A stretch of 64,000 bases of DNA, from the NCBI GenBank assembly GCA_947650365.1, contig OX393551.1, positions 63,973,644-64,037,643 of the forward strand. Reading direction: 5' to 3'. Each line of letters starts with the position of its first letter. The first letter of the stretch is position 1. The translations under genes were made by a program, and so were the position numbers. Source of the stretch: Chamaelirium japonicum (lineage: Eukaryota > Streptophyta > Magnoliopsida > Liliales > Melanthiaceae). Below the pieces are notes generated by a model that was not told the origin of the DNA, did no database searches, and saw nothing but the letters and a program-made list of their open reading frames with translations. Shown one piece after another: positions 15,436-61,968 of this stretch.

Positions 15436-15440
15436 GGACC

Positions 15441-32677: not shown

Positions 32678-33959
32678 TGTAAGAACCTAAATTTTCTAAT
32701 ATATAAATTGTGAATAAATGACGTGACACTTGTGTGAATATATGTGATTATTTGTTGTGATGGTAAAGTAATGACCTTAATCCTAGTACAAGCTAGAGTA
32801 GGGTACCTATATGAATGTTTTAATATTTATTTATCTTTTTATTAGATATTTTTGGTCTGTCTCCATTTCTGGTTTTGTTTCACGTAAACCCTAGAAATGT
32901 TTTACGATATGTTTATTCGTATCTTCGACACCTTCGCTTTGACGCGTCCCGCGCGCCAACCATATTTTTATATGAGAAGTTATGATATTAGATACTTTTG
33001 GGGTAAATTTCTAGTGTGATCAATTGGATAATCGAAATTCTGTAAAATTATACCAGTTAGTTCGTCTCGTCGATACCTTCCCAACATATATTTTTGGAGA
33101 TTTTTTTGACACAGTTAAAGAGTTGCGTCTCAATGTCCGTTTTCATCATTCCAAAGTATAGGATGACGGAACGGAATTAACGAAATCCGATCAAACCCAA
33201 ACCATTGGTTCCGAACCGTCGAGATCTTTCCAACGGCAGATCTCGAGTAAGGATCATACTTACTGATTGAAAGTTATGATCGATTGTTGTTTACGAGATG
33301 GTACCCTATAATTGTCTTCGTTTGCCAATTACGTGGGTACCTCCATGGTCTAATCGGGCACCGTGGAGCGAATTTTCCCTCGAAGCAGGTATCCCTTGTG
33401 CGCGTGTGTGAATCCGAGCCATATGTATAGCACGCGTGTGCGAGTCCCTATCGTTAATTAATGTCTGCCTTGTATGCAAGTGTGAATCGCACCAGAGTAT
33501 TGTGGGCCGTTGTGCCTGTGTGCAAGTGTGAATCTTATATGTGTGCGAATCATAGCCATTGATCTCATGTTCATGGGATCAAGGAATCAATAAAGGCTGC
33601 CCCCACCGTTTTGATCCCCTGACCTCTTCGAACATTGCCCTAACACCCTACCCTTTGGGCATTTGGCCGGTCCCACCGAGAGAGGAAGAGTGGGAGCAAT
33701 GCAGAGAGAGAGAGAGAGAAAGAGAGAGAGATAGAATTGGAGAGAGTGGGAGATAAATGGAGAGAGAAGAAGGGGACCAGATCCCCCAATGCTACACAAT
33801 CGGACCGTACGGCCAGTACTCCCTCACCCTCTCCTTGAACCCGCGTTGAAAAACCAGTCCCCCACACCCTTCTTCCATGCCCATTAAACGAGAGGAGAGA
33901 AGAGAGAAGAAAGAGATGGAAAGTAGAACAGAGAGAGAGAGGGCTCGGGTGAGGGAATG
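32678..33959 (+). other. First segment of the giant LTR
   Basis: Non-coding. It includes (GA)n at 33700-33735, a block rich in GTGTGCGAATC-like words (33395-33550), and ends at the GAATG duplication of Copia-B (33955-33959). Confidence 0.55.
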
Positions 33960-34088
33960 TGTTAGGAGACGACGGCTAGGGTTTGGAGAGGAACAGAATG
34001 ATTCCATTGAGGGACTCAAGCCCAATATATGTACAGTAAACCCGACCCGACTATACAGTAAACCCGACCCATTACATTTACATTAACA
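33960..34088 (-). repeat. 3' LTR of Copia-B
   Basis: 129 bp, identical to 39047-39175. On the minus strand it directly follows the purine tract at 34089-34100. Confidence 0.93.
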
Positions 34089-34101
34089 CTCCCCCTCAAA
34101 C

Positions 34102-36906
34102 TCACGGTGGATCATGAACCGAGAGTTTGCCTAGAAAATGTCGGAAGCGAGCAGTCGTCAGTGGCTTCGTCAGAAAATCAGCAGTCTGCTCCGATGAGGG
34201 AATGAAAGGCAGGGAGATGATGTGATCGATAAACGCCTGGCGAACATAATGACAGTCAACTTCAATATGCTTTGTTCGCTCATGGAAGACCGGATTGCTA
34301 GCAATCTGAATAGCACTCCGGTTGTCACAGAAGAGAGGGGTCGGCCCGGATATCACCACTCCCAAGTCAAGCAGAAGACGTCGAAGCCAGACAATCTCGG
34401 CGGTGGTGAAAGCCATAGCCCTGTATTCGGCTTCGGTGCTGGAGCGAGCAACAGACTCCTGCTTCTTGCTGCGCCATGAAATCAGTGAGTCACCCAGAAA
34501 CACACAGTATCCTGTAGTAGATCGACGAGTGTCTGCATCTCCTGCCCAATCTGCATCTGAGTAGGAGCGCAGTACCAACGGAGAGGTGGAGGGAAACAGG
34601 AGTGAACGGGTGATGGTGCCCCGGAAATAGCGGATAATCCGAAGAACAGCTGCATAGTGTACTGACCGTGGAGCCTGAACAAACTGACTGACAATGCCAA
34701 CAGCATGGGCAATGTCTGGCCGGGTCATGGTGAGATAGACAAGCATCCCAACCAACCTCTGGTAGCGGGAGACATCCTGGAGCGGCTCACCATCGGTAGC
34801 GAGAAGCTTCAAATTGAGCTCCATGGGTGTATCAGCAGTACGTGTGTCAGTGAAGGCAGCATCAGTAAGAATGTCGGAGATGTACTTCTGCTGGGAGACC
34901 AACAGACCACGAGCTGACCTGGCAATCTCAAGACCCAGAAAGTAGCGAAGAGAGCCCAGGTCTTTCATCTCAAACTGACTCTGGAGGTGCCGCTGGAGAG
35001 AGGCGATGGTGGCACTGTCATCCCCAGTGATGATCATATCATCCACGTAGAGGAGAAGGACTGCAATGCCCTGACTGGAGGAGCGAGTGAACATGGCATA
35101 GTCAGAGTGACGCTCAACAAACCCGGCGGCCAGAACTGCACTGCGAAAGCGCTCAAACCAGGCACGAGGAGCCTGCTTGAGCCCATAGATAGCCCGGCGC
35201 AACCGACACATGTGTCCTGGAGGAACTGAAGTGCCCGGAGGAGGAGCCATGTAGACTTCCTCGGAGAGATCACCGTGAAGAAACGCATTGGTGACATCCA
35301 TCTGATGGAGAGGCCACCCTCGAGCAGCTGCCACAGCTAAGAGGGTGCGCACAGTAGTCATCCGAGCAACTGGAGCAAACGTCTCCTCGTAGTCAATCCC
35401 ATACTCCTGGGAGAAGCCACGAGCAACGAGACGAGCCTTGTGCCGCTCAATGGATCCGTCAGGTCGAGTCTTGACCTTGAAGATCCACTTGCAGCTAACA
35501 GGCACCACCCCGGGGGGACAAGGCACCAACTCCCAGGTCTGGGTCCGCTGAAATGCCTCAAGCTCAACTGACATGGCCTGCCGCCACTCTAGATGTAATG
35601 CTGCCTCACGGTACGATTGGGGCTCCCGATGAGTGTGAAGAGCAATAAGGAAGGCCTGAAAGGATGGTGAATAGGAGACACTGGTAGAGAAGCCAGAAGA
35701 GTCAGGAGAGTCAGTGGGAAAAGCAGAGTAACCAAACCTGTCAGGAGAGTAGTCGTATCTGGCAGGAGGGTGATGTTCGCGCGCTGGGTAGCGCCGAACA
35801 CGAGCAGGATCCACGACCGGGGAGGAGGGAGCAGCAGCATCAGGCGAGGGAGTACCAGGGAGAACCGACTCTGGAGGGGGAGCTACAGACCGATGTACAT
35901 AGACACGAGTAATGGGTGGTGGTGGTGGTGGCGTGGGGGACTGAGGAGGTGGTGGTGGTGGTGGCGATGGATACTGAGGAGGTGGTGATGGTGGTGTAGT
36001 AGGCGTGGATGGGGCAACAGAAACCGGGGGTAGAACAGGGATGTGGAGATGGGAGGAGGGCGAGGAGGATGACGAAGTAGGCAAGGAAAGATCCCGAGAC
36101 TCAGGAGCAAAATACGGGACATCCTCAACAAAGGAGACGTGACGGGAGACACGGATCCGACGAGCTAAGGGATCATAGCAGCGATACCCCTTATGCTCAC
36201 GACTGAGCCCCAAGTGAACACACCTAACAGACCTTGCAGAAAGTTTGGTGCGCTCATGGGGAGGAAGAAGAACGAAGCACGTGCAGCCAAACGTGCGAAG
36301 AAAAGAGTAGTCAGGTAGACTGGAGTGAAGGCGCTCGTGAGGGGTGGCACCGGACAGAGCAGATGACGGAGTGATATTGATGAGGTGGACAGCCGTCATG
36401 ACAGCTTCAGCCCAGTAGGAGTGAGGGACAGACGCAGAGAGAAGCAAGGCTCGTGCAGTCTCAAGGACATGACGATGCTTGCGTTCGGCAACGCCGTTCT
36501 GCTCATGGGTGTGGGGACAGGACTGCTGGTGAAGAGTGCTGTGAGACTGAAGAAGCTCACGCATCTCAGAGGAGAGATACTCCTTGGCACAATCAGACCG
36601 AAAGGTCTTGATTCGCCGACCACACTGGGTGTGTATCATAGTGGTGAATCGCCTAAAGATTTGGGGAATTTCAGACCGATGACGCATGAGATAGACCCAG
36701 GTGCACCTAGAATAGTCATCGATAAAACAAACATAATACATATAACCAGATAGAGATGCAACAGGAGCAGGACCCCAAATATCCGAATGAACTAAATCAA
36801 ATAAAGCATTAGACTGGGAAGTACTAGCAGAAAAAGGAAGAGCTAGATGCTTTGCCAGTCGACAACCCGTACAGACAGAGAGGGGGGAGAAAGACGCTCG
36901 ACCCAA
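34102..36906 (-). CDS. Copia-B pol: integrase, reverse transcriptase, RNase H
   Basis: A 934-residue frame. Residues 1-40 are the end of the integrase zinc-binding region (CTGCRLAKH). The integrase core follows (about 40-200, including HSDIWGP and HEQNGVAERKHRH). A proline-rich linker lies at about 280-400, then reverse transcriptase (about 455-700, with KWIFKVKTRPDGS, MDVTNAFLHGDL and the catalytic LLYVDDMIITGDD), and RNase H (about 780-920, with DADWAGD, SSTEAEYRA and the C-terminal ADFLTKPL). These act in copying element RNA and inserting the DNA. The frame is long and uninterrupted, in keeping with a recent insertion, but the polyprotein upstream is broken, so I treat it as a fossil. Confidence 0.92.
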   Translation of the reverse strand: MGRASFSPLSVCTGCRLAKHLALPFSASTSQSNALFDLVHSDIWGPAPVASLSGYMYYVCFIDDYSRCTWVYLMRHRSEIPQIFRRFTTMIHTQCGRRIKTFRSDCAKEYLSSEMRELLQSHSTLHQQSCPHTHEQNGVAERKHRHVLETARALLLSASVPHSYWAEAVMTAVHLINITPSSALSGATPHERLHSSLPDYSFLRTFGCTCFVLLPPHERTKLSARSVRCVHLGLSREHKGYRCYDPLARRIRVSRHVSFVEDVPYFAPESRDLSLPTSSSSSPSSHLHIPVLPPVSVAPSTPTTPPSPPPQYPSPPPPPPPQSPTPPPPPPITRVYVHRSVAPPPESVLPGTPSPDAAAPSSPVVDPARVRRYPAREHHPPARYDYSPDRFGYSAFPTDSPDSSGFSTSVSYSPSFQAFLIALHTHREPQSYREAALHLEWRQAMSVELEAFQRTQTWELVPCPPGVVPVSCKWIFKVKTRPDGSIERHKARLVARGFSQEYGIDYEETFAPVARMTTVRTLLAVAAARGWPLHQMDVTNAFLHGDLSEEVYMAPPPGTSVPPGHMCRLRRAIYGLKQAPRAWFERFRSAVLAAGFVERHSDYAMFTRSSSQGIAVLLLYVDDMIITGDDSATIASLQRHLQSQFEMKDLGSLRYFLGLEIARSARGLLVSQQKYISDILTDAAFTDTRTADTPMELNLKLLATDGEPLQDVSRYQRLVGMLVYLTMTRPDIAHAVGIVSQFVQAPRSVHYAAVLRIIRYFRGTITRSLLFPSTSPLVLRSYSDADWAGDADTRRSTTGYCVFLGDSLISWRSKKQESVARSSTEAEYRAMAFTTAEIVWLRRLLLDLGVVISGPTPLFCDNRSAIQIASNPVFHERTKHIEVDCHYVRQAFIDHIISLPFIPSSEQTADFLTKPLTTARFRHFLGKLSVHDPP

Positions 36907-36933
36907 AGCGCCCGAACGGAATACGCTTTTGAG

Positions 36934-37245
36934 TCAATCACTTGATATATGACCTAACCTTCTGTGCCACAGGTCGGCATCAGAGGTGACAGACATGACA
37001 GACGCAACTGAAGACACATGGAGATGGTCCAACTGGTAGAGTCCTCCTGCCCTACGGCCCAGCCCAATCCTCTGACCCGTTCGCGAATCCTGCACAACAC
37101 AAACAGAAGGGGTGAAGGTGACAGTCAGGCCAGAGTCGCAAAGAGAACTGATGGAAATCAAATTAATATTAAGACGGGGGGCATGATGGACATGGGATAG
37201 GGTCAGGCGACCAGAAGGGTCAGAGGTGGTGGTGATGGAGCCACA
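36934..37245 (-). other. Copia-B protease / pre-integrase segment
   Basis: This stretch links the gag and pol frames and carries the GAG-pre-integrase signature (DLWHRRLGHIS). It is where the element is interrupted. Confidence 0.7.
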
Positions 37246-38505
37246 TTACGGAATAGGGACGAGAGTCCCATCCGCAGTGCGAACCTCCTGGTGGGTGGTA
37301 GTGGGAGAACAGTCCGTGAGGACAGTGGAGTCAAAAGTAAGGTGACAGGAGGCACCCGAATCGAAGATCCATGGAGCAGTAGTACCAGAGGTGGCAGACA
37401 AGCCGTGCGCAGTCGCGGAGCCGGTGGAGGCTATGTGGCGAAGAAGGAGCTCCTCGAGGCGCTGAAGACGGTCCGGCTCAGGCGGCGAAGGAGATGTGGG
37501 AGCAGTGGGCAGTGGCGAGGCCTCTGTAGTAGCCGCTGCACCACCAAAGTGGCGAAAGGAAGACGAACCACGTCCTCGGCCCCGTCCACCTCGACCACCG
37601 CGTCGATCATCGCGAGAGGTCGAAGACCAGCGGGGGGATCTCTCATCCGGACCCCAGCGGGGGTTGCGTGGAGGACGTGTAGGGCACTCGCGCTTCATGT
37701 GGCCGGGCTCCTTGCAGTAGTGACAAAAAACAGCCTCATCGGAGAACCCGGCTGCCAAGACAGAGTCGGAGCTATGAGCAAGTGGAGGAGCACGAGCGCC
37801 CTGAGTCTGAAGGCGGGTCTCCTCATCGACTAAGGCGAGTAGGGCATCCTCGAGCCGAGGGAGGGGCTCACGGTGCAGGAGCTGGGCGACTATGAGAGCA
37901 AAGTCTGGTCGGAGTGCTGCCAGGAACTGGTGCAGGTGGCCCTCGTCGAGGTAACGCTGGAAGTCCCGGGAGCGGGGGCAGTCACACCGCTCCGGAATCA
38001 GTGAGTCCAGCTCATGCCAGTAGGCACTCATCTGACTGAAGAAGTCCTGAATGGTACGCTCCCCCTGACGGGCAGACTGCGAGTCGCAGATGAGCTGATG
38101 CCGGCGGGCGCCGCCGCGTGGGAGAAAACGGTCCCGGAGATACTCCCACATCGCGCGCGCAGTCGGAAGGCGGCCGATGGGAGCAAGGAGCGGACGAGCA
38201 ACCGAGTCCAGGAGGTACGCCCGGATGGCCTGATCGTGGCGGCGCCACGTAAGAGCAGCAACGGTGACGGCCGTGGTAGTAGTCGCTGCAGAAGATGTAG
38301 CACTGCTGGTGACAGAGGACGAGCCGGAGTAGTCAGTGGGAGGAGGATCCTCGCCGGTGATGTGACCCCACAGATCACGACTGGAGAGGGCGGCCTCGAC
38401 GGTGAGGGACCAGTCAGGCCAGTCGCTGGCCGACGACAACTGAAACGCAACCGCCTTTAGCGGTGGAGAGATCGCAACGACAGACGGTACGGCTGGAGAG
38501 GCCAT
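37246..38505 (-). CDS. Copia-B gag with start of protease
   Basis: A 419-residue frame opening MASPAVPSVVAISPP. The N-terminal two-thirds is a UBN2-like gag domain with the conserved WEYLRDRF-like segment (about 115-125) and a QLICDSQ-to-SAYWHELDSLIP stretch. A single zinc knuckle (CHYCKEPGHMKREC) lies near residue 265, followed by an RG-rich patch (GGRGGRGRGRG). The C-terminus carries the aspartic-protease active-site motif (FDSGASCHLT) near residue 390. Gag would package the element RNA. It begins about 540 bp inside the 5' LTR. Confidence 0.88.
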   Translation of the reverse strand: MASPAVPSVVAISPPLKAVAFQLSSASDWPDWSLTVEAALSSRDLWGHITGEDPPPTDYSGSSSVTSSATSSAATTTTAVTVAALTWRRHDQAIRAYLLDSVARPLLAPIGRLPTARAMWEYLRDRFLPRGGARRHQLICDSQSARQGERTIQDFFSQMSAYWHELDSLIPERCDCPRSRDFQRYLDEGHLHQFLAALRPDFALIVAQLLHREPLPRLEDALLALVDEETRLQTQGARAPPLAHSSDSVLAAGFSDEAVFCHYCKEPGHMKRECPTRPPRNPRWGPDERSPRWSSTSRDDRRGGRGGRGRGRGSSSFRHFGGAAATTEASPLPTAPTSPSPPEPDRLQRLEELLLRHIASTGSATAHGLSATSGTTAPWIFDSGASCHLTFDSTVLTDCSPTTTHQEVRTADGTLVPIP

Positions 38506-38519
38506 GGAGGAGGTTGTAG

Positions 38520-39034
38520 GGTGTCAGAGGGTGTCGGGGGGGCTGTAGGGGGGGTCGGGGGGGGTTTCGGGTGGTCGGAAGGGGCTGTAGGGGGGTTTCG
38601 GGTGGCCGGAAGGGGGGGCCAGTGGAGGAAGGGTGATGTAGGTGGTGGCGACGGCTGTAGGGGGGGTCGGGAGTGGAGGCGGGGGCTGCTGCAGGGGGTC
38701 GGGGGTGGAGGAGGGGCTGCAGGGGGTTTCGGTGGCCGGAAGGGGGGGTTGTGGGGGTTTTGGTTGGGCGGAAGGGGGGCTGTAGGGGTTCGGGGGGCTG
38801 GAGAGGGGGGTCGGTGGTGGAGGAGGGGGCTGCAGGGGGTCGGGGGTGGAGGAGGGGGCTGCAGGGGGTTTCGGGGGTCGGGTGGTGGAGGAGGGGGCTG
38901 CAGGTGGCCGGAGGGGGGGGCCGGTGGAGGAGAGGGGCCGGACAGAGTAGGTGCAGCCGGCGGAGGGATCAGCCGGAGGAGATGCAGCCGGCGGGAAGGA
39001 GGGAGACTGGAGAAGGTGCAGCCGTCACCCTAGA
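38520..39034 (-). repeat. C-rich leader of Copia-B (G-rich on the plus strand)
   Basis: The plus strand repeats GGGGGTCGGGGGTGGAGGA and GGGGGCTGCAGGGGGT many times with an irregular period of about 30-60 bp. It lies between the primer-binding site and gag, so the element's RNA would carry the C-rich version. The long plus-strand glycine-rich frames here are artefacts of composition. Confidence 0.75.
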
Positions 39035-39046
39035 GCTCTGATACCA
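39035..39046 (-). other. Primer-binding site of Copia-B
   Basis: On the minus strand this is TGGTATCAGAGC, complementary to the initiator-Met tRNA 3' end, directly after the LTR. Confidence 0.9.
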
Positions 39047-39175
39047 TGTTAGGAGACGACGGCTAGGGTTTGGAGAGGAACAGAATGATTCCATTGAGGG
39101 ACTCAAGCCCAATATATGTACAGTAAACCCGACCCGACTATACAGTAAACCCGACCCATTACATTTACATTAACA
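39047..39175 (-). repeat. 5' LTR of Copia-B
   Basis: 129 bp, followed on the plus strand by the second GAATG duplication. Confidence 0.93.
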
Positions 39176-39180
39176 GAATG

Positions 39181-41135
39181 AAAGAGAAAGAGAAAGAGAG
39201 AGGAAAGGAGAGAGAGAGAGAGGAAGAGAAGTAGAGAGAGATCGAAAGAAGAGCCGGCAGTAACCCTCTGCGTCGACGACTACCTGCAGCCCAAGGCAAG
39301 CCGACCCCCTCCTCTCATTTCAGTCGATACTAGCACCCGGTAATGGCCGGAGCCCAACCATGACCACCCCATGCGAACCCGTGGCCGGATTTCATGCCGG
39401 ACCACGGAGTTCGCCGGCACGAAACGAGCGCACCCCGGCGCGAGCGGTCGCTCCCCGGTGGTAACCCTTGGCTTCCTATTCGCGTCGATGGCGTGGGGGA
39501 GGCTAGCCGACCACCGGAGGTGGTGCCGAAGTTGTGCAACCCCCCCCCCCCCCCCCCCCCGACGAGTAGGGATGGCAACGGTGCGGTTTAAACCGAAAAC
39601 CGCAAAAAACCGTACCGCATGGTACGGTTTTGGTTTGCCAAAATATATAACCGTCACGATGTGGTTTCAGTGTAGCAGTACGATTTCGGTTTTGACCAAA
39701 ACCGTATAAAACTGCACCGTTTAGATCATTTCAGTGATAAACCACGATGCACCGTACCACACAGCACCGCATGGTGCGGTTTCGATTTTACGTAATGGTA
39801 CACCGTCACAATGCAGGACGATTTCGGTGTTGTGGTACGATTTTGGTTTTACCCGAAATCACTCCGTTGCCATCCCTACCTCCGAGTGCTGCTTCCATGC
39901 GAAAAAAGGGAGGAGCACATACGAGTTGTAAATTAGATACTCTTAAGGGCACATTAGTCATTTGTGTTAGATTTATTTAAAATGTTAGGGGGTGCCCTAA
40001 TAGGGTTTATAAAGGAATATAAGGGCTACCCTTAGCAACCAATTCAGTTGCTAGGCCCCACTCAATGGGTGGACCCCACATAAGTGATTGGGTCCCACCG
40101 TTGTGCAATGCATAGTGTTGAGATGGTTTCGGTCGTCGTTTCGCTGTCAGGAGTCGGAATTCGACGAAACTGACGGCAATGGACTTGATTTTTCTAGACC
40201 TACCCGTTGACAGTAGGTTAACCTAAAAGATACAAAATTACCAAAATACACTGTCATGGAGTTTAGTCGATCTTGTATCGGCCTTAACTTTGCGATCCAA
40301 ACTCCGAATCCCACAAAATTAGCGACACGGGTCCCGAATCCAGATACCAACTATCTATACCATTGGAATCTAGTGGAGGACCCTCAAAGATTCAGGGTCC
40401 CACTTAACTCCTAAGTCATGCCCTCCCAAAGGGTTGGACCCATTCTTTTGGGAACAAGTCCATGCACACCAAACATGATCATCGCACGGATCCCCATGCT
40501 CTTGGTTCAATATTGGTCCCCTATGGAGGGTGACCTGGCCAATACCATAGTGCCAAACGTCTGCCAAATCCCTATTGAGGGCGATCCAATAAGAGTGATC
40601 GAAATCACCGCCAGTTGATCCCCTATGGAGGGTGAACCGACTGTTTAGGCATAAAACCCTAGTTGCATCGATCGTAATGGTGCCATGACGTATCCACCCT
40701 ATATTTTTGTTGTTTTGACACGCGTACTTGGATTGTCGATTTACCAGGTTACCATGTGGAGTTCGATCGGTAGAGGTCTAACCCTGAGCAGAAGAGGAGG
40801 AGCTTACTACGAAATCCAAGGCAAGCCCCTATACTCCTAGTTTTAGGAATTTGGTTTAACAAATAGGGTCTATTACATGTTAATTAGGGTTAGATTCATG
40901 ATAATTCGGATCTAACACACACTAGTTGAGTTTTAACCATTGCTTGAATTAAGGTGTGCGAGTGTGTTAAATTAGGGTTCAGATCTTGTTTGGATTAGGG
41001 CTCTTTATGCTAGATGATGTTGGACTTGTGATAACTTATGGTTGAACTATACTAAGTTAAGACTTTGAATGTTTCGCATAGGGTTAGATCAATGCTAATT
41101 AAGATTTAAAGCATGCGGAGCTATGTTCTACTATG
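39181..41135 (+). other. Second segment of the giant LTR
   Basis: The GAGA block interrupted by Copia-B continues here, followed by a GC-rich leader (39250-39566), a hAT element, and a middle part that shares CGTCGTTTCGCTGTC and TTGGTCCCCTATGGAGGGTG with the LARD LTR middle. Non-coding. Confidence 0.5.
39567..39878. mobile_element. hAT-like MITE (CGGTTTTGGTTT-rich)
   Basis: The ends TAGGGATGGCAACGG and its exact complement CCGTTGCCATCCCTA are inverted repeats. The flanks CCGACGAG (39559-39566) and CCTCCGAG (39879-39886) match at six of eight bases, as expected for an eroded 8-bp hAT duplication. The 312-bp interior repeats GGTACGGTTTTGGTTT-like words and has no transposase. Confidence 0.8.
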
Positions 41136-42520
41136 TGATGCAGCATGATCAGCACCTTCGGATCATCGCCGAATCTCCAGATCATCGCCAGAGACCTTTA
41201 TTTACAGTCGTTTTTTATTTTATGCTTGGAGGACATTACCCATATGGGACTTGTTAGCCGTTTATTTCAGTTTTTGGCCATTTTCTATGTTTTTGGCCTA
41301 ATTTCTGCACTTAGTACTATTTATGTTCTTGCTCAATTCATGGGGGATGTCCATGATCTCATCTGAGGGCTTTTCGGATTGAATCCGGGTCTTCTCGGGT
41401 GAGTTTCTGCATGTTATTAATAAAAATCTGGGTACGTGTGTTTGCGGGGTACCGACGGACGAGATTATATCTCGAAACCGATGGTTAGATAGCGAAATAA
41501 CTCAAAATTGATGATGTGGCAGCATATGGGCTTCAACTAGGAGTTAAATGGGCTTATCTTAATCCCAATAGGGCTTCCCATTGAGTGCCGCTCCCCTCTC
41601 TCTCCCTTTTTCCGTGAACCACCCGCCCGCTACCCCTTGTCCGCGCGAAATAGGCCACCCGACCCCCTCTTCCATCCCCTCTCTTCTCTCTCTCTTTTCC
41701 CCCTTGTTTCTCTCTCTTTTCCTTGCCTTTCTTAGCCCATTGCATCCCCGCCATCCATCCTTAATTCCCTTTGATCTTGGACACCCAAAAGAAAAACCCT
41801 AATGCTACAAAAAGATGAAGAAAGGAGGAGAGATCAGAATTTGATAGTTGCTGAAATTCGTGCCTCTTCATGAGAGCCTCCGGGAGAGACTCGTGTCCCC
41901 GACCCTCGCCGCATCCGCGACTTCGTCTCGTGAAGGCCTTGGCTTATTTTTTCGAAGGATCCGGCTTCTCATGAAGTCCGGCCTTGCTCCGTGTGCGGGA
42001 TCATCGGCGCATCCTCTCATCGACCCACGGCGGGAAAACCCAGGCATTATCTATCCTTTATTTTATTTTCCCTTCGCATCCACCTCATTTTCATTTTGTT
42101 TTCATTGCCTCCGCTCCGCCTCGTAGCCGTAATCCTCCCGTTCATCACTAGTTGAAGCCCTAAAATATGCCTAATCATTATATTTGCTATCTTTAGTCTG
42201 TCGGTAACCCTAGCAAGCATGCTTAGCCTATTTTTAGTGAAAATCTGATGCAAACCTATCTTTAAATCTCAATATCTATTGCTGCGATTTAATCTCTTAT
42301 ATGCTGAAATTAGTTTCCGTGATACTATTGCGTCTTTTATTGTTAAATCTTAAACCTGCTTTATGTTGACTGCATAGACTCTTAGTACTGCGTGAGATAG
42401 TTTATGTTTGCTGTCCTTTTGAGTCATACGATGTTATATTGATAAATAAATCTTAGTTGTTGACCAAAGGGAACCCTAAAGGGCTTAAGATTGTAGTGCA
42501 CCTTATCGGTGCCTGCATCA
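41136..42520 (+). repeat. 5' LTR of the chromovirus-like element
   Basis: 1,385 bp, ending CTGCATCA three bases before the primer-binding site at 42524. It contains a CT-rich block (41580-41760). A short frame at 41581-41802 also occurs in the 3' LTR and is not a gene. Confidence 0.9.
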
Positions 42521-42523
42521 AGT

Positions 42524-42535
42524 TGGTATCAGAGC
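42524..42535 (+). other. Primer-binding site of the chromovirus-like element
   Basis: TGGTATCAGAGC, complementary to the 3' end of initiator-Met tRNA. Confidence 0.9.
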
Positions 42536-42691
42536 TTGAAAGAACCTGTTCGGGTTTCTTTTAAGTGCTGAAATTCAGCAAACCCTCATCTTCTTCTTTG
42601 CTGATTTTGCATAGGGCATAATCTTGCGTGCTTGAAATTGCATCTAGTGTTAGGATTGCATCGTGTGAAACATCTGTATATCTCATAACCC

Positions 42692-44040
42692 ATGGCTGAT
42701 CGTACCCATCTGCACCGGGATGCCCGGAATCGGGGACGTTTCCCTCGAGGACCACAACCTCGTGGTGCTTGGCAAGAAGCGACCCAAAATACGTTGGATC
42801 GACATGCAACCTTGTTGCAAGAGATCACCGATAGGCTGGGATTACTATTACAAGATAGAGGCGTCAACCCTCATACTCGATCGGTCGAAGAGGACCCGGG
42901 AGGGACAGAAGCCAATCCACATACCGAGGGTCATAGGGTCGAAGAGCAAGACCGAGACCAGGGCTTAAATCGAAATCCGATTCTAACCCCACCTCAGTAC
43001 CAGAACCAAGCCTTACCTCGGAATCACAACCGATACCAACTGCACGAACGAAATCGAGCTGACTATCTTGACTCGCCCCCTGAGTCTGAAGCTGAGTTGG
43101 ACGAGTCCGACGTAGACTTCGAACGAGAGTACGTTCAGTTCGATCGTCCAAGAAACCTATGAGAGTAGCATGCGTGTGATCAGCACGGCATGGAAGAGCG
43201 TCTTATGCGAGCCCTTGAGAGATCCCAAGGTTATGGAGTCCGAGTTAACATCGATGACTTTAGGGGAAGCCATAATACTGACGCATTCCTTGACTGGATA
43301 GAAAGCGTCGAGCACTTCTTTGAATGGAAAGGTCCCCCTGATGATCGAAAAGTCAAACTCGTGGCAACTAAACTGAAAGAAGCCACTTTGGTTTGGTGGC
43401 GAGAGTTGCAAACAAGTCGCCTTAGGAAAGGAAAACAAAAGGTCGCAACGTGGACCAAAATGCGTGACAAGATGCGACTGAAGTCCCTTCCTCCTGACTA
43501 CCGTACCTCTCTGTACCAGAGGTTGCTTAGCCTGAAACAAGGCAATCAAAGCGTACAGGAGTACACTGAAGAGTTTGACATCCTGACCATTCGTAATGCC
43601 ATCCCGAAAGACGATGAACAGAAGGCTGCACGCTACGTCTCGGGATTGCGCTATCAAATTCAGGACGCGCTAGCAATGCAGACCATCCTCACTGTGATGG
43701 AAGCATCTAGGCAAGCTCTCAAAGCTAAGAAGATTTAACAACGAGCCTTTAGGAGAGAGGTTGCCCCTAGAGTACCCCCAGGTGCCCCTTCAGCTGGAAG
43801 AGGAGCACCCCCTACCAGAGTCACCCCATCTGTTCCGACTCTGACTACAACTCCATCAAGAACCCATCAACCCCCTGGTCGGGTTGAACAACCAAGTCGT
43901 GAGCAAAGTGCGATAGGGAGTCGACCACCCAGAGCGACTTACAAATGCTTTGAGTATGGAGAAGTAGGACATCTCATCGCCCAATGCCCAAAAAGGAGAC
44001 CTCAGACCCACCTGACGGAGAGTGAAGAGCCAACTGAGAA
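42692..44040 (+). pseudogene. gag region of the chromovirus-like element
   Basis: The first part (42692-43162) starts MADRTHLHRDARNRGRF and is polar, as in gypsy gag leaders. The second (43190-43738) holds the retrotransposon gag core, with FLDWIESVEHFFEW, KLVATKLKEATLVWW and SVQEYTEEFDIL. A zinc-knuckle remnant lies near 43945-43995. Fossil coding sequence. Confidence 0.85.
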
Positions 44041-47000
44041 AACCCTAAACAACATGACTGAAGAAGGGTATGATGATGATCCTAGAGATGCCGAATATCA
44101 GGAGGATGACGAAACACACGATGTCGTCGCTGAAGCTGACAAGGCAACGCATGCACTAGTCATGCACCGTGTTTTGTCGACACCGAAAGCTCCTGAACCA
44201 AATCGATGGCTTAGAAGGAACATCTTTCACACCACTTGTACCTCAAAGGGGAGGCATTGCATTCTCATCATAAACAGTGGTAGTACCGAGAACTTGGTCG
44301 CCTAGATCATGGTCGACAAGTTAGGGCTCAAGATAAAGAAGCTGGTCAAGCCATATAACTTGTCTTGGTTCAAGAAAGGATCAAATGTCACTATTAAAGA
44401 GCGATGCTTAGTCGAATACACTATTGACAAAATATATAAGAAAGCCGTTTGGTGTGACGTGGTGCCCTTGGGCATTTGTCACATTCTGTTGGGCCGCCCG
44501 TGGCAGTACGACAGAAAGACAAAACAAGATGGGGAGAAGAACACTTACTCCTTCTGCACAGATGACTATAATATCACCTTAGTGCCTCAGAGGGAACCCC
44601 TGAAACCAATTTCTAGTGAGCCGACACCCCCACCCATCACCCCGAAATTACCAAAAGAGAAACCGAAAGCCCTACCAACATTGCTGACACAAGCTTGCTT
44701 CGAGGATGAGCTTAGAGAATCTCGCTCCATCTTTTTCCTAGTAGCAAAAGAAGCCGCAGAGGGCCCTAGCATTCCGCATGAGGTTCGAGTCCTACTTGAA
44801 GACTTCAATGATCTCATCCCAGAGGAACTACCTGAAGGACCTCCACCTCTTTGGGATATTCAACATTGCGTTGACCTAGTTCCAGGAGCGACGCTACCTC
44901 ACCTTCCTCACTACCGAATCAGTCCGTCTGAATATGAGGAGATGTGTCAACAGGTTACCGAGTTACTACAAAAGGGACTAATCTAAGAGAGCATAAGTCC
45001 ATGAGCAATACCTGCACTCCTAACTCCCAAGAAGGATGGGACATGGAGAATGTGCATAGATTATCGTGCCATCAATCGAATAACTGTCAAGTATAGATTT
45101 CCGATTCCCCGATTGGATGATATGCTTGACATGCTATATGGTGCGAAAATCTTTTCGAAAATTGATCTTTGTAGCGGTTATCATCAGATCTGCGTACGAC
45201 CTGGTGACGAATGGAAGACTGCATTTAAAATCCGGAAAGGACTGTATGAATGGCTAGTAATGCCATTTAGTCTATTGAATGCACCAAGTACCTTTATGAG
45301 GTTTATGAATCAGGTTCTCAGACCATTCATATGAAAGTTCATTGTCGTATACTTTGATGACATCCTTATCTATAGTACGACATCTGAACAGCATGTCGAT
45401 CACTTGCGAGAGGTCCTGAAAATGCTAAGGAAAGACAAGCTGTACATCCATCTGAAGAAGTGCACCTTTCTGACAGACAGCTTGACCTTTCTAGGCTATA
45501 TCGTGTGCTCCAAAGGGATACGGGTCGATCCAGAGAAGGTCGAAGCCATCAAATCATGGCCCGTTCCAAAGAACATTAGTGATGTGCGACGGTTCCATGG
45601 TCTAGCGTCTTTTTATTACAGATTCATTAAGAACTTTAGTTCCATCATTGCACCTCTCACGAACTGTATGAAGAAGGGTGGTTTCCTTTGGACCCCCGAA
45701 GTTGAAGCGAGTTTCGACCTCATCAAGGCCAAGATGATGAGTGCTCCAGTTTTGGCACTCCCGAACTTTGAAATGGTCTTTGAGATTGACTGTGATGCCT
45801 CTCACGTCGGGATAGGAGCAGTCCTTAGTCAAGAGGGATGTCCTGTCGCAATCTTCGGTAAGAAGCTGAACGCCGCGTGTTTGAATTACTCGACATACGA
45901 CATTGAGTTTTACGTGATTGTTCAAGCCCTCAAGAGGCATTACTTGATCCAGCGAGAATTTGTGCTCAATTCTGACCACGAAGCACTTCGCTATCTGAAG
46001 TCTCAGCATAGCTTGAACCAACGTTATGCTAAGTGGTCAAATTTCTTACAAGAGTATACATTCAACCTCAGATATAAGGCTGGAGTCCTGAATAAAGCTG
46101 CTGACGCTTTGAGTCGACGAGGCCTGATGCTAGTCACTTTACAGCCCGTCGTTATTTCTTTTGATGCTCTGAAATCAATGTACGCGATTGATCCGTACTT
46201 CGGTCCCATCTGGGAATCCTGTCAGGAAGCGAGCACTGATCCCACGGCATCCTATATCATCCAAGAGGGATTCTTGTTCCGTGAAACTCTCCTGTGCATC
46301 CCAGAGTGTTCCCTTCGCGAGAGTCTTGTTTAGAACACCCATGAAGGGACCGTCTCTGAGGAAAATCCTAATGAATCTTTTAGAGATACATTAATCCATG
46401 AATTGCACGAAAGTAATTTGGGAGGTCATTTTGGCCAAACCAAAACAATTGAATCAGTGGAACGACACTACTTTTGGCCTCACTTAAGAAAAGATGTCGT
46501 CAAGTTTGTGCAATGATGTCGAACCTGTCAAATATTCAAAGGCAGGAAGCAGAACACAGGTCTGTACATTCCTCTGCCAACCCCTGCTCGTCCTTGGGAG
46601 GATATCACCATGGATTTCATTGTGGGTCTACCTCGAACACTTCGGCACGTCGATTCAATCTTTGTGGTTGTAGACCGATTTTCTAAAATGGCACATTTCA
46701 TACCATGTAGGAAAACTTCTGATACATCTTATGTAGCTGAGTTATTCTTTAGAAAAGTTGTTCATCTGCATGGCATTCCACGGTCATTCACATCTGATAA
46801 GGACACTAGATTTTTGAGCCACTTTTGGCGTACTCTTTGGTCAAAGTTAGGAACCAAACTTCAATACAGTAGCGTGTATCACCCTCAAACTGATGGACAA
46901 ATGGAAGTTATCAACCGTAGCCTTGGGGATATGCTTCGATGTCTAGCTGGCGAAAGACCAAAACAGTGGGATGTAGTTTTACCACAAGCTGAATTCGTAT

Positions 47001-47690
47001 ATAATAGTTCAATTAATCGCTCAGTAGGTAAAACTCCTTTTGAAATCATCTATGGCCATGTTATTCCCCACTTCCTGGATAGAACTGCCTTACCGCCTAC
47101 AGGTCCTGCAAGTGCTGATGCTGATGAATTCCTTGAACACATCAAGACCGTACAATAAGAGTCGCTTGAGAAACTGAGGAAAAGCAATGCCAGGTATAAG
47201 GCCAGCGCAGATTTACACAAGCGAGAGAGCACCTTTCAGCCAGGGGATTGGGTCCTCGTTTACTTTCGTAGAGAGCGGTTTCCCACAGGTTCTTATGGGA
47301 AACTAAGCCAGAGGAAGTTTGGGCCCTTCCGCGTTCTCCGAGCGTTGGGACCCAATTCTTACCTGCTGGATTTGCCAGATGATATGCCGACATCGTCGAT
47401 CTTCAACATCTCAGAGTTGTTCCTTTTCCACGGAGACCGGCCAGATACGCCTTCAGCGCCACAGATTTTTTTTCAGATGCACAGCGAGACGAGACAGAGC
47501 AGATACAGGAGATAGTTGACGTCAGAGAGCTTGCTACCCGCCGCGGTGTTTTCTGACGGTTCCTTGTTCGGTGGGTACGCAGGCCACTTTCAGACTGTAC
47601 CTGGGTGGATGAGCGACAGTTACAAGCACAGCGGCCTGACCTCGTACAACAACTTGACGTCCACTCGACGGAGTCGAGTTCTTTCTAGTC
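44041..47690 (+). pseudogene. pol region of the chromovirus-like element
   Basis: Recognisable in order are a protease region (44200-44520), a linker with the pre-RT segment (44700-44985), reverse transcriptase (45000-45420, with [11 protein letters not shown] and [11 protein letters not shown]), RNase H (45700-46120, with CDASHVGIGAVLSQ and ADALSRRG), the integrase zinc-binding part (about 46390-46560), the integrase core (46610-47158, with MDFIVGLPRT and YHPQTDGQMEV), and a chromodomain-like stretch (about 47500-47690). The chromodomain, known in this group to aim integration at certain chromatin, is why I call it a chromovirus. The region is broken several times. Confidence 0.88.
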
Positions 47691-47699
47691 CGGGGGAGT

Positions 47700-49083
47700 T
47701 GATGCAGCATGATCAGCATTTTCGGATCATCGCCGCATCTCCGGATCATCGCCAGCGACCTTTATTTACAGACGTTTTTTATTTTATGCTTGGAGGACAT
47801 TATCCATATGGGACTTGTTAGCCGATTATTTTAGTTTTTGGCCATTTTCTATGTTTTTTGCCTAATTTCTGCACTTAGTACTATTTATGTTCTTGCCCAA
47901 GTCCTGGGGGATGTCCATGATCTCATCCAAGGGCTTTTCGAATTAAATCCGGGTCTTCTCGGGTGAGTTTTTGTATGTTATTAATAAAAATATGGGTACG
48001 TGTGTTTGCGGGGTACCGACGGACGAGATTATGTCTCGAAACCGACGGTTAGATAGCGAAATAACTCAAAATTGATGATGTGGCAGCATATGGGCTTCAA
48101 CTAGGAGTTAAATGGGCTTATCTTAAGCCCAATAGGGCTTCCCATTGAGTGCCGCTCCCCTTTCTCTCCCTTTTCCCGTGAACCACCCGCTCGCTACCCC
48201 TTGTCTGCGCGGAATAGGCCACCCGACCCCCTCTTCCGTCCCCTCTCTTCTCTCTCTCTTTTCCCCCTTGTTTCTCTCTCTTTTCCTTGCCTTTCTTAGC
48301 CCATTGCATCCCCACCATCTATCCTTAATTTCCTTTGATCTTGGACACCCAAAAGAAAAACCCTAATGCTACAAAAAGATGAAGAAAGGAGGAGAGATCA
48401 GAATTTGATAGTTGCTGAAATTCATGCCTCTTCGTGAGAGCCTCGGGAGAGACTCGTGTCCCCGACCCTCGCCGCATCCGCGACTTCGCCTCGTGAAGGC
48501 CTTAGCTTGTTTTTTCGAAGGATCCGGTTTCTCCCGACGTCCGGCCTTGCTCCGTGTGCGGGATCATCGGTGCATCCTCGCATCGACCCACGGCGGGAAA
48601 ACCCAGGCATTATCTATCCTTTATTTTATTTTCCCTTCCCATCCACCTCATTTTCATTTTGTTTTCATTGCCTCCGCTCCGCCTCACAGCCGTAATCCTC
48701 CCGTTCATCGCTAGTTGAAGCCCTAACATATACCTAATCATTATATTTGCTATCTTTAGTCTGTTGGTAACCCTAGCAAGCATGCTTAGCCTATTTTTAG
48801 TGAAAATCTGATACAAACCTATATTTAAATCTCAATATCTATTGCTGCGATTTAATCTCTTATATGCTGAAATTAGTTTTCGTGATATCATTGCGTCTTT
48901 TATTGTTAAATCTTAAACCTGCTTTATGTTGACTGCATAGACTCTTAGTATTGCGTGAGATAGTTTATGTTTGCTGTCCTTTTGAGTCATACATCATTAT
49001 ATTGATAAATAAATCTTAGTTGTTGACCAAAGGAAATCCTAAAAGGCTTAAGATTGTAGTGCACCTTATCGGCGCCTGCATCA
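47700..49083 (+). repeat. 3' LTR of the chromovirus-like element
   Basis: 1,384 bp, preceded by a polypurine tract ending GGGGGAGT and followed by CTATG. Confidence 0.9.
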
Positions 49084-49099
49084 CTATGTATAACTTGGA

Positions 49100-49990
49100 T
49101 TTGATGACCCATATGTATCTAGGGTCTAGTAACTCATATGTAATCAAGGTCCGAGGACCCTTGCTTATCTTGGGGCTGATGACCTATGCCTTAACAAGGG
49201 TCTGATAACCCTCGTGCAAACCAAGTCTGATGACTAAATCGTAATTAGGGTCTGACAACCCATACAAGTCCAGGGTCTTATGACCCATGTGTAACCAGGG
49301 TCTGTTGACCCATGTGCAACCAACGTCTGATGACCTATAAGCAACCATTCTCGGAAGACCATAAGTGACCAGGGTCTGATGACCCATACACGATCAATGT
49401 CTGATGACATATAGATAACTAAGGTCTGATGACCCATAGTTAATCAGGGTCTGATGACCCGGATGTAAATAGGGTCTTAGGACCCATGTGAGAATTAGGA
49501 TTTCTACTTATATATAATCATTGTCAGATTGACCTAAGTGTGATCCGGGTCTGATGACCGAAGTACATCAGGATCTAAGGAGCCTTGTGTAATTAGGGTC
49601 AGAGGATTCATATGAAAATAGGGTTTTAACTTAAAGTGTAATCAGGAAACAATGATCCATACGATAATTAGGGTCCGACGACCTGTGTGTAATTAAAGTC
49701 TGAATAACACCATGATTAGGGATTAATGACATATATAGGATAGTAAATGATATGTTTTGGTTTAATGACACAAGGATTATAACACCTGAATAAGATGATG
49801 CAATATTTAGGATATAGGATATATCAAAGTTTGTATATACCATGATCATGATAAGGGTTAAGGAACATATGATTGTTTGAGAGTCTATGACCCTACAGTA
49901 GTTTAAGGGCTAATGCCCTATGATTGCTTGAGGGTCTATGACCCTATGTTAGACTTGAGGGCCAATGGCCCTATGTTGATTTTTAGGGTC
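49100..49990. repeat. Hairpin minisatellite (GGGTC-TGAT-GACCC type), more than 20 units
   Basis: Every 30-45 bp there is a short palindrome, typically GGGTCTGATGACCC, separated by spacers such as CATGTGTAACCA. Variant units keep the pairing with different arms: ATGTC/GACAT (49397-49410), AGTC/GACT (about 49224-49235), AGGGCC/GGCCCT (about 49958-49972) and AGGGC/GCCCT (about 49905-49920). It lies in the giant LTR directly downstream of the gypsy insertion. Confidence 0.8.
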
Positions 49991-52430
49991 CACGACCCTA
50001 TGTGATTAAGCTGATCGATAAGCATGACGAAAGCACGAATCAAAATAGTAGATAATTTATTTAGGCTAAGGACAAGCATAGCTTTGATCAGGGCTGATCT
50101 AATGGCATTCGTGCCTGGAGTAGAAAGAATCAAACCACGTCCCTACATGCGTAGGTATGTGAAGTACGTGGTAGGTTCAATCCATACATGCAGAATGTTG
50201 CATGACCATCGTGTGTGGGATGGAGGTGGACCCCATAAACTCACACGAATGATGGTCATGTAGCCGCATGCAAATGGTTAAACCTACCACGTAGCACATT
50301 TTTATCAAAGCTGAACCTACCGGATGTCGTGATAGATTCGTCAGCCCTATGAGTCTAACTATATTGACATAGAGTTATGTCAAATCCTTGTTTAAATGAT
50401 TGACTAAACTAATTTTCGGCGACTCTTCCAAAAGAAACGGTATGTCACCGTTACAGCAGGATGGTTTTAGATTTGAGAAGATATAATTAATATTTTGAAA
50501 GATTTTCAGCGGATGCATAAATCTAAAAGATGAAAGGATGAGTTAATCGGTACATAATGATATGCTTAGTATAGGCCATGACTTGAGTGTGTTATACCCT
50601 TGTATGTATGTATTGTACCCCTATATGTATGTTTGTACCCGTGTATACATGTAATTGACCCCCTAATTGTTTGTACTGTGCATGTTAGGATTTCAATATT
50701 CCTAGGTAATAATAGGTTACCTAGTGTATATTTGTGTGTCTGTATTGTAACGTTAGAATCCTTGTATCGCTTAGATGATTGTAAGTTATCTAATATTATG
50801 TCAAGAACCCGCACCTATCCTTAATATAAGGAATTGCGAAGCCATAGCATACTGTCGTTGACACTAGTAAGCTAGTACTGTGGTACTAACTCTTGGGGAA
50901 CTATGGGTCCCAAGCATGGCACTCGAGGAAGGTTAGTTGTTTTACCTGAGAGGTATGCCTTTTCGGACACAAGAAAGTTCGGAGATAGCGAATGCCTTGA
51001 TCAAGCATGTCACTGGGAGTAGTGGTTCGATGAGACGTTGTGAAGCGGGACTTGGTCTGTATGATACTACTACCGGACTGTGGTTGTGAGGGTGTGAGTG
51101 ATCAAGAGTGTACGCTGTCATGGTTTTTTCGGGTCGATGGGCCCGAAGAAAAGCAAAGGTGCGCCCTAACTTTTGTGTTTTTGTGGTTTCGGCAAGATCT
51201 TTATCCTAAGTGTGTTAGTATAGTAAGTCATGGTAGCATCAATGAGGACTGATTGTGATTATGCATTGTTGATTCTAAGATGAGGCAAACTGATATCCGC
51301 CATGGGCTGATGATCATGGATTAGACCGTTGAGTTTTAAATTGTGTTAAAGTGGTTGGGGTTTACAAAGAAATTGTAAGATTAACAGTGATTGATCCAAT
51401 TTTGGTTATGTATTACTGAGCATATAGGCAACACATAGTGCTTTCAGTTCTGTATAGATGACATTGAGTCATATTACTAATAGTGATAATAATAGTTTGA
51501 GTTGTAAAGGACATTGTAAAATTGACGAATTAAGGTTGTATGCTATGAAAAAGAGTTGAACAATTGTAGTTAATAAACATAAGATGAAACCAAAGGACAA
51601 AAATGAGTAATGATAGTTATACGTAAACATTATGGTTTTGCTTGATTGATAGTTTAAGTATTTTTCATTGGCAGTCTTGCTTCATATTTTAGTAACACTC
51701 TTGCGTGACCAAAAAATGTGTCTCCTATCTTTGTTTGGTTGGAAAACACGTTTCATGATCATCAAGAGTATTTATACAAGAATGCAAGATATTTTTTAGG
51801 AGTGATCGCTGCGTCATTTCGTTCCTATTCGAAGTGACTAAGGGTTTGGAAATTATCATATACCAAATTCAGGTATCGAGATTCGTGAGCACGAGTAGGA
51901 GCGAAAGGATGACGAGTTACAGCTGGAGCAGCAATATACCTTGAAGACTGGAGCCATCGTGGAGTTTGAGTGCTAGAGTAGGAGCGGAAGTTGGAGCAGC
52001 CGTTAGCCGTATAGAGATCAAAAGTTGTATATAGTTGTAAGTCGTTGTATAAAGGAAGTCTTGTAATAGTTGTATCCGGTTGTCGATATAAGTTTTACTC
52101 TTTTAGTGAAAATGGACTGAAGCGTTTGTATATCAGCTGCTCTCTAATATTATTAATCCAACACTGAGTATGGGGCCTCTAGGATAGTTGAGTGGACGTG
52201 AGGTCCAGTTCGCCCTATGGGCTGAGCTACGTGCTCTCGTAAGAGTATAACACTCTTGCGTAATCAAGAAGTGTGTCTCTTGTCCTTGTTTGGTTGAGTA
52301 GCACATTTTCTAATCACCAAAGGTGATGCCTGCGACGGTCGAGTTGTTCTTTCTTTCTATTTTAATCTTTTGGTTCTTCTTTGCGAGCATGAAATCCTAA
52401 TGAAAATTAGGGACCACCCGAGCAAGGAAG
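49991..52430 (+). other. Last segment of the giant LTR, with an 80-bp direct repeat
   Basis: Non-coding. Two copies of about 80 bp (51693-51775 and 52248-52327) share ACACTCTTGCGT and CTTTGTTTGGTTG-like sequence, 555 bp apart. The block at 51880-52150 resembles the end region of the LARD LTR (GAGTAGGAG, CTTGTAATAGTTG). Confidence 0.5.
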
Positions 52431-52444
52431 AATAAATAAAAAAG

Positions 52445-53117
52445 AAAAAGTATCAAAATTCGTAAGATCAGAGAGAAATAGAGTTGATCATTTGACCAAA
52501 GGTCTTTCTACAAACACAGTACTAGAATCATCGAGGAGGATGAGATTACAACTCATAGGCTAGTCACATATAACATCAACCCTTCTTCTGTGATTGGAGA
52601 TCACATGAAGGAGGTTCAACGAAGACTAACAAGCTGATAGAGTGATCAGTGGGGGAGCACAATTCTTAGGAGTATATCTTCTCCCCATCTATATGGTGAG
52701 TGTTCTGATCACGAGTGACGGTCTAGGATGAACTTTTCTCTTAATGAATCCAAGACGAGATTTTGCGAGGTACCATTCCGTCACTAGTGCCCTTGAAAGA
52801 CTCACATATATGAGAGTAGTCGTGGGGCTACGATTATGGGAATTACGCAATTCCATAATAACTCTTGTGAAGAAGCAATGTACAAGTGCACGACGTAGCA
52901 CACTAACCCACTATGAACCCACTTAGTTTACTCTGCGTGTGGCTTTGAATTCTGGCTCAAAGGTCCTAATTCAAGACCTAGTTCAATGTGCATCCTTTAG
53001 ATGGAAAGAGTTAACATTAAGTGAAGGCTCATGTCCGAAAGACTCCTTTATCGGTTATACAGTATAGTGTTACCCAATATTTTTTTGATTTTTAAAATTT
53101 TAAATTTTGTGAGGGAT
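52445..53117 (+). pseudogene. Copia-A: end of RNase H region and 3' untranslated part
   Basis: A readable stretch close to KFVRSERNRVDHLTKGLS is the C-terminal RNase H signature of copia elements, continuing what stops at 32677. It is followed by non-coding sequence and a purine-rich GTGAGGGAT immediately before the 3' LTR. Fossil. Confidence 0.75.
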
Positions 53118-61145: not shown

Positions 61146-61165
61146 GTGCCTTCCCCCACCCCTTC

Positions 61166-61935: not shown

Positions 61936-61968
61936 AATCCGTGGGCTAATTTCGGTGCCCACAAGCCC

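What the first reader, a model, noticed from the sequence alone, without database searches (positions are those of the whole stretch)
32678..52430. A gypsy LTR of about 6 kb, apparently solo, inside an old Copia
Copia-A RNase H sequence stops at 32677 and resumes at about 52445. After subtracting three younger insertions, the intervening sequence is about 6.2 kb, has no gag or pol, starts TGTAAGAACC, and follows the LARD LTR's order of landmarks (GAGA leader, GACGAAACTG, TTGGTCCCCTAT, CTTGTAATAG). LTRs above 5 kb are rare. If right, this is a distinct giant-LTR family related to the LARD at 4958.
Basis: partly seen in the sequence, partly recalled or inferred. Interest (0 to 1): 0.7.

Follow-up and report, generated by a model that had tools for sequence, protein, structure and literature searches.

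The report
Giant-LTR non-coding gypsy retrotransposon
This is an old, decayed copy of the 6.3 kb end repeat of a gene-less jumping element whose young copies consist almost entirely of two huge repeats around a tiny core, an extreme and recently active form of a known kind of plant retrotransposon.

Summary
With a Copia (33960-39175), a small TIR element (39566-39879) and a gypsy (41136-49083) set aside, 6.29 kb of non-coding sequence remains between 32678 and about 52456, inside a Copia whose RNase H is interrupted. It aligns colinearly (2284 bits; no hit in 280 randomised sequences) with an LTR that is paired elsewhere in the same genome. The best pair (C16) has 6373/6374 bp LTRs, 99.97% identical, the 5-bp TSD TCTCC, a PBS, a PPT, and a non-coding internal domain of only 1024 bp. 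Twelve tabulated copies (11 sites) have LTRs of 5.97-6.39 kb and internals of 1.02-1.04 kb, so the LTRs are about 92% of the element. Solo LTRs with perfect TSDs and three-LTR tandems also occur. The window copy lacks the last ~46 bp of the LTR, its TSD and 27 bp of Copia, so 'solo' is likely but not provable. The LARD at 4958 is a distant relative. A coding chromovirus relative shares the U3 start, PBS and PPT core but has a 3.2 kb LTR. I file it as a LARD-like, Tekay/Del-type non-autonomous family with unusually long LTRs and an unusually short internal domain: a new variant of a known kind.

The parts
32678..33959 (+). Giant LTR, segment 1: U3 start TGTAAGAACC, GA-rich leader; last 5 bp are one copy of the nested Copia's TSD
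39181..39565 (+). Giant LTR, segment 2a (GA-rich end and beyond)
39880..41135 (+). Giant LTR, segment 2b; its part up to about 40666 lies in the region homologous to the LARD LTR
49089..52456 (+). Giant LTR, segment 3: palindrome-rich tract, best conserved block about 50800-51300, two ~80-nt stem-loops; last ~46 bp of the LTR missing
51686..51772 (+). Stem-loop A (about 80 nt)
52241..52327 (+). Stem-loop B, diverged duplicate of A
52457..52460 (.). AATT microhomology at the deletion junction between LTR and Copia
33960..39175 (-). Younger nested Copia, 129-bp LTRs 100% identical, TSD GAATG (orientation read from the PBS-like motif near its right LTR, not tested further)
39566..39879 (.). Younger nested small element with 16-bp terminal inverted repeats
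41136..49083 (+). Younger nested gypsy, LTRs about 1385 bp, 95.3% identical, TSD CTATG
32300..32677 (+). Host Copia, RNase H region up to the insertion point (left part)
52461..52700 (+). Host Copia, right part after a 27-bp loss
4958..15436 (+). Distantly related LARD: LTRs about 4050 bp, 98.8% identical, internal 9008-11387 (2380 bp)

Best explanation
The stretch is the remnant of one LTR (6.29 of about 6.3 kb) of a non-autonomous gypsy family related to Tekay/Del chromoviruses. Shown: an intact member is two 6.0-6.4 kb non-coding LTRs around a 1.0 kb non-coding internal domain, with TG...CA ends, 5-bp TSD, PBS and PPT. Inferred: one transcript from the 5' LTR to the 3' LTR, about 7.4 kb (LTR plus internal), is packaged, reverse transcribed and integrated by proteins supplied in trans by a chromovirus with matching PBS, PPT and LTR ends. 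Solo LTRs and three-LTR tandems are seen in other copies; that LTR-LTR recombination made them is inferred. In the window a copy inserted into an old Copia, lost its internal part and second LTR, lost its right edge in a deletion with AATT microhomology, and was then hit by three younger elements.
For: Colinear alignment with the C16 LTR, bases 2-6201 of 6373, 2284 bits, no hit in 280 randomised targets. Paired LTRs 6373/6374 bp at 99.97% (C16), pairs at 99.5% (C72) and 99.05% (C256), and a C6 triple. TSDs TCTCC, GTAAC, GTAAC, GATAC on multi-LTR copies and GTAGC, GAAGT, GAAGC, GGATC on solo LTRs: 8 of 9 copies with both outer ends in hand (7 of 8 sites, since C6 and C72 are one site); C119 has none. 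PBS TGGTATCAGAGC and PPT AAGGAGGGAAGGT at the internal edges. The internal domain keeps its length (1.02-1.04 kb in 12 tabulated copies, eight of them measured from match coordinates only). No Tekay protein homology: no hit below E 1 to the internals, and the one LTR hit is E 0.027; no Pfam match in 3 LTR open frames. Of 83 exact LTR ends, 23 continue into a PBS; they form 54 single, 10 double and 3 triple clusters. A coding relative (C6:59881375-59890437, minus strand) has an integrase 72% identical over 484 residues to that of another Tekay-like copy, the same PPT core, PBS and TGTAAGAACC start, and its LTR matches the giant LTR's last 2.4 kb in four ordered pieces (best E 3e-50).
Against: The window copy itself has no TSD, no PBS and no internal domain, so its own subfamily's internal is unknown. 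It is only about 75-80% identical to the intact copies in the blocks that align. Part of the LTR middle does not align by BLAST, only in the nhmmer search, and the reciprocal nhmmer search breaks into four pieces. The coding relative's 5' LTR ends GTGATA, not GTGACA, and its open frames are interrupted, so a working helper is inferred. No expression or replication data exist.
Confidence: 0.93

Rival explanations
1. Not a solo LTR by LTR-LTR recombination, but the 5' LTR left after one deletion of about 7.5 kb that removed the LTR's last ~46 bp, the internal domain, the 3' LTR, the TSD and 27 bp of Copia.
For: One event explains the missing 46 bp, TSD and 27 bp together, and AATT is shared at the junction.
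Against: Single LTRs are the commonest state among exact ends: 47 of 54 single ends lack an exact PBS (some may be 3' LTRs whose partner end has mutated). Of five single copies read at both ends, four are solo LTRs with a TSD and one, C119, has no TSD. A small later deletion would do.
Confidence: 0.45
2. A composite of unrelated fragments.
For: Segments are separated by long insertions, and parts give no BLAST match to the C16 LTR.
Against: One colinear 6.2 kb alignment to a paired LTR, no hit in 280 randomised targets.
Confidence: 0.02
3. An LTR of an ordinary coding Tekay element: the window's own subfamily might have had gag-pol.
For: A coding relative shares PPT core, PBS, U3 start and the 3' part of the LTR. 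The internal of the copy closest to the window in segment 3 (C5:67739133) was not seen.
Against: The coding relative's LTR is about 3196 bp and its 5' half shows no nhmmer match to the giant LTR. The 19 PPT-LTR junctions within 3 mismatches of the family's are all assigned by internal matches to the 1 kb type (13) or the 1.46 kb sibling type (6); only some were read in full. A looser pattern did reach the coding relative.
Confidence: 0.06

Closest known systems
LARDs (large retrotransposon derivatives; type example Sukkula of barley, recalled)
   Same: Long non-coding LTRs, a conserved non-coding internal domain, PBS and PPT kept, presumed mobilised in trans
   Different: LTR 6.0-6.4 kb and internal 1.0 kb, against about 4.4 and 3.5 kb for the type (recalled; the defining paper is not held)
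Del/Tekay chromoviruses
   Same: U5 end GGGGCGTGACA has the GGG at -8 to -10 of type A att sites (PMC4029996, section 14 read); homologous LTR 3' part, PBS and PPT core in a coding copy
   Different: No genes. LTR far above the 1.1-4.4 kb range given for Del in PMC4029996 (passage; one group mean there is 4559 bp)
LARD at 4958-15436 in this window
   Same: LTR 5' half homologous and colinear, same LTR end, PBS and similar PPT
   Different: LTR 4050 bp, internal 2380 bp; its LTR 3' 1.1 kb matches the 1517-bp LTR of another coding element, C8:52803566, in three pieces at 85-92%
Tandem LTR-retrotransposons (PMC11899658, passages)
   Same: LTR-internal-LTR-internal-LTR with one TSD, polymorphic between haplotypes
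   Different: The 28 selected in that paper carry coding domains; here the unit is non-coding
TRIMs such as Cassandra and Wukong
   Same: Non-coding, tandem-forming (PMC7215508 passages; PMC4528315 start of abstract)
   Different: TRIM elements are characterised by small size; these are about 13.8 kb

Membership tests
LTR retrotransposon | Two direct LTRs with TG...CA ends and a target site duplication | tested here: met
   Met in C16, C72, C256 and C6; the window copy has the TG end only
LTR retrotransposon | PBS and PPT next to the LTRs | tested here: met
   (genome copies, not the window copy)
LARD | No gag-pol in LTR or internal domain | tested here: met
LARD | LTRs of several kb | tested here: met
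   5.97-6.39 kb in 12 tabulated copies
LARD | Large conserved non-coding internal domain (about 3.5 kb in the type, recalled) | tested here: not met
   Internal is 1.02-1.04 kb, conserved in length but small; hence 'LARD-like', works like a LARD
TRIM | Very short LTRs and small element | tested here: not met
Tekay/Del | Type A U5 att, GGG at -8 to -10 | tested here: met
   LTR end GGGGCGTGACA
Tekay/Del | Polyprotein with integrase-chromodomain of this clade | tested here: not met
   Absent in the element. Present in coding relatives: Chromo matched at 19 bits in the C8 copy, below the Pfam cut-off of 25.1; the C6 copy's integrase aligns with it to residue 505 of 507. No RT tree was built, so the clade name is inferred

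The most novel reading that the evidence does not exclude
In these gene-less elements the LTR grows as the internal domain shrinks, so that the length of the packaged transcript (LTR plus internal) stays near that of a helper element. Four non-autonomous (sub)families give LTR/internal of 6230/1027 (mean of 12), 6259/643, 5150/1457 and 4050/2380 bp; the second and third come from match coordinates. LTR and internal correlate at r=-0.98, and the sum is 6.4-7.3 kb with a CV of 5%. The 4958 LARD (6430 bp) nearly equals its coding relative (1517+4833=6350 bp). Selection on RNA length or on LTR-borne RNA structure would explain why the LTR, normally kept short, exceeds 6 kb. Against it: only four related points, and the coding relative nearest to the giant family has a 9.06 kb unit.
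Probability: 0.25. Interest if true: 0.7.

Novelty: new variant of a known kind. Interest (0 to 1): 0.5.

Why it matters
LTRs above 3 kb are called uncommon (PMC3485330, passage), and Del LTRs were described up to about 4.4-4.6 kb (PMC4029996, passages). A recently active family with 6.4 kb LTRs and a 1 kb core is near the far end of what an LTR element can be. It lies outside the LTR cap of 6000 bp and the coding filter of a reference survey (PMC6317226, passage), so such elements can go unannotated. They are natural material for asking what an LTR element needs in cis, and why LTRs stay short elsewhere.

Tried and rejected
Composite of fragments: rejected. BLASTN between the LARD LTR and giant LTRs gave only short matches: none with C16, 2 with the window LTR, 4 with C12; nhmmer was needed. 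Conserved RNA structure: 39 of 195 alignment windows (both strands, three sequences) had an alifold z below -3 and 2 above +2, but that control destroys local palindromes. nhmmer found 18 stem-loop hits, 17 kept (one on the minus strand dropped); 13 of the 17 were aligned, four near-duplicates left out. On these, 91.2% of cells pair, against 89.2% in shuffles (2 of 500 as high), while pairs with double-sided changes (4 against 5.4) and further pair types (22 against 25.5) are not above shuffles. So stem-loops are there, but selection on them is not shown. Rfam gave only a weak MIR1515-like match at the place of stem-loop A in C16, E 0.017, 29.4 bits against a gathering score of 140: not accepted. 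Palindrome excess in LTRs (40 against 15.4 in window segment 3, 65 against 27.9 in C16) counts long stems several times. The coding-partner search by LTR-start/PPT pattern gave 19 sites; three that were on no earlier list were read: one coding Tekay-like (L041), one with zinc-knuckle-like residues (L039, by eye), one without recognisable coding (L040). The copy closest to the window in segment 3 (C5:67739133) is itself broken by insertions and did not give the left end. In the listings and passages I saw, no element with LTRs above 6 kb and a 1 kb core was described; the library is partial.
Full report
1. The observation. The window is C3:63973644-64037643 of an unnamed 1.52 Gb genome. Copia similarity ends at 32677 and resumes at 52457 against each of the three genomic Copia relatives that I fetched (of 40 scored places); 27 bp of Copia are absent from the window in all three comparisons. 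Between the two ends lie three younger insertions: a Copia with 129-bp identical LTRs and TSD GAATG (33960-39175), a 314-bp element with 16-bp inverted ends (39566-39879), and a gypsy with 95.3% identical LTRs and TSD CTATG (41136-49083). The remainder is 6.29 kb. It gave no match at E 0.01 to Tekay-like gag, RT or integrase queries, which did match the nested gypsy; its longest open stretch is 152 aa stop to stop.

2. It is one LTR. The first segment found 40 scored places out of 676 candidates, and 38 of the 40 (the window included) begin at its first base. Several come in pairs about 7.4 kb apart. In C16 the pair is 6373/6374 bp, 99.97% identical, with TSD TCTCC on both sides. C72 (99.5%) and C256 (99.05%) are also pairs, and C6 has three LTRs and two internals. 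C12 has one 6208-bp LTR and a second one that matches only over its first 3.7 kb. LTRs of these young copies start TGTAAGAACT and end GGGGCGTGACA. The PBS TGGTATCAGAGC follows two bases later, and AAGGAGGGAAGGT precedes the 3' LTR. The window segments, read in order, align as one block with bases 2-6201 of the 6373-bp C16 LTR (2284 bits); none of 280 targets randomised by a second-order Markov chain was hit. With the window LTR as query the match to C16 is split into four ordered pieces. The window copy ends in the AATT of the LTR's '...TCAAAATT' (as in C12), about 46 bp before the LTR end, and passes straight into Copia. No TSD partner for AGAAC is left.

3. The family. The internal domain is 1024 bp in C16. 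A search with it gave 65 matches from 40 scored places (410 candidates), of which 20 cover bases 14-1022 or more. In the 12 copies tabulated (11 sites; eight measured from match coordinates only), LTRs are 5965-6389 bp, internals 1024-1038 bp, and LTRs are 92-93% of the element. The longest ATG/GTG/TTG open frame in the C16 LTR is 148 aa, with no Pfam match in the three frames tested. Tekay-like proteins do not match the internals at E below 1 and match the LTR only at E 0.027. An exact 19-base LTR end occurs 83 times; 23 of these continue into an exact PBS. They form 54 single, 10 double and 3 triple clusters. Of five single copies read at both ends, four are solo LTRs with perfect TSDs and one, C119, has no TSD. 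C6 (three LTRs) and C72 (two LTRs) have flanks 99.9% (801 bp) and 99.6% (2252 bp) identical and the same TSD, so the same insertion exists in two forms; haplotypes are likely, an assembly error is not excluded. In 5 of 12 elements looked at (4 of 11 sites) the 5' flank holds a 23-bp satellite.

4. Relatives. The LARD at 4958 shares the LTR end, the PBS and a similar PPT, and its LTR bases 107-941 and 757-2125 align with window-LTR bases 206-1097 and 1142-2456 (E 9e-12 and 2e-29). A sibling family (L031 read; C11 and C241 by matches) has, from C11 coordinates, LTRs of about 5150 bp and internals of 1457 bp. A coding element at C8:52802901-52809915 has gag, RT, RNase H, integrase and a weak chromodomain match. 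Its LTR is 1517 bp, and bases 502-1517 match the 4958 LARD's LTR in three pieces at 85-92%. A second coding element, C6:59881375-59890437, has a PPT core and U3 start like the giant family's. Its integrase is 72% identical to the C8 one over 484 residues, its LTR is about 3196 bp and ends GTGATA, and that LTR's last 1.64 kb match the giant LTR's last 2.4 kb in four ordered pieces. The first halves of the two coding LTRs show no match to the giant LTRs tested, while the two non-coding families share theirs. This suggests modular descent but does not prove it. The C6 coding copy is broken into several open stretches.

5. How it probably works. Shown: cis signals are complete and coding is absent. 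Recent movement is shown by near-identical LTR pairs with TSDs. Inferred: a transcript of one LTR plus internal, about 7.4 kb, uses the proteins of a chromovirus with matching ends. PMC4029996 (passage) proposes that att sites could identify the machinery used by LARDs, and the LTR end here fits its type A. Long LTRs recombine, which fits the many single LTRs and the triples. PMC3485330 (passages) says that longer LTRs inhibit transposition, citing a paper whose title, seen in part there, adds that Ty1 then forms tandem multimers.

6. Known or new. Non-coding LTR elements with long LTRs are known (LARDs), and tandems are known and common in Tekay of rice (PMC11899658, passages). What is unusual is the proportion: 6.4 kb LTRs around a 1.0 kb core. 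PMC6317226 (passage) searched with an LTR cap of 6000 bp, kept only coding elements, and reports LTRs up to about 5 kb in non-chromoviruses. PlantLTRdb used a cap of 7000 bp and reports no LARDs (PMC10025401, passages).

7. Results against my reading. The window copy alone cannot show that it was solo. Its own subfamily's internal was not seen. The stem-loops lack covariation support and were not found in the coding C6 LTR, the sibling L031, the LARD or the coding C8 LTR. The constant-sum idea fails for the C6 coding relative (9062 bp). The clade name rests on LTR ends, the chromodomain and homology, not on a tree.

Noticed in passing
window 51686-51772 and 52241-52327; C16 LTR 5528-5609 and 6089-6167: An ~80-nt stem-loop present twice in 8 giant LTRs and once in C5a (17 copies), not found in 5 other sequences searched; apical CTTGTTTGGTT almost invariant. 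Pairing kept in 91% of cells, covariation not above shuffles.
   Followed up: partly
window 49104-50010: Tract of degenerate ~25-bp units, many of them short palindromes of the type GGGTC-NNNN-GACCC, with one GGGCC/GGCCC version.
   Followed up: partly
window 50164-50283: Long imperfect hairpin of about 120 nt, conserved in C12 and C16 (41 pairs, 35 invariant, none compensatory); perhaps an ancient foldback insertion.
   Followed up: partly
L011, L012, L014, L028: Young copies sit in arrays of a 23-bp satellite (TCGTACGAATGAATTAGAATGGA) that switches strand repeatedly.
   Followed up: no
C6:56762254-56783469 and C72:58385-72174: Same insertion and flanks (99.6-99.9%) with three LTRs in one and two in the other.
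   Followed up: yes
L033/L037 (C8:52802901-52812000): Coding Tekay-like element whose 1.5 kb LTR shares its last kb with the window's 4958 LARD; its unit length (6350 bp) nearly equals the LARD's (6430 bp).
   Followed up: partly
window 33960-39175: Very young nested Copia (129-bp LTRs identical, TSD GAATG).
   Followed up: no
L039 (C2:31897501-31899500): PPT-LTR junction TGTAAGAACCCAT preceded by a stretch with zinc-knuckle-like residues (by eye), perhaps a gag-only derivative.
   Followed up: no
window 58925-62069: Several short tandem or dispersed repeats (50-100 bp units) in a GC-richer region.
   Followed up: no
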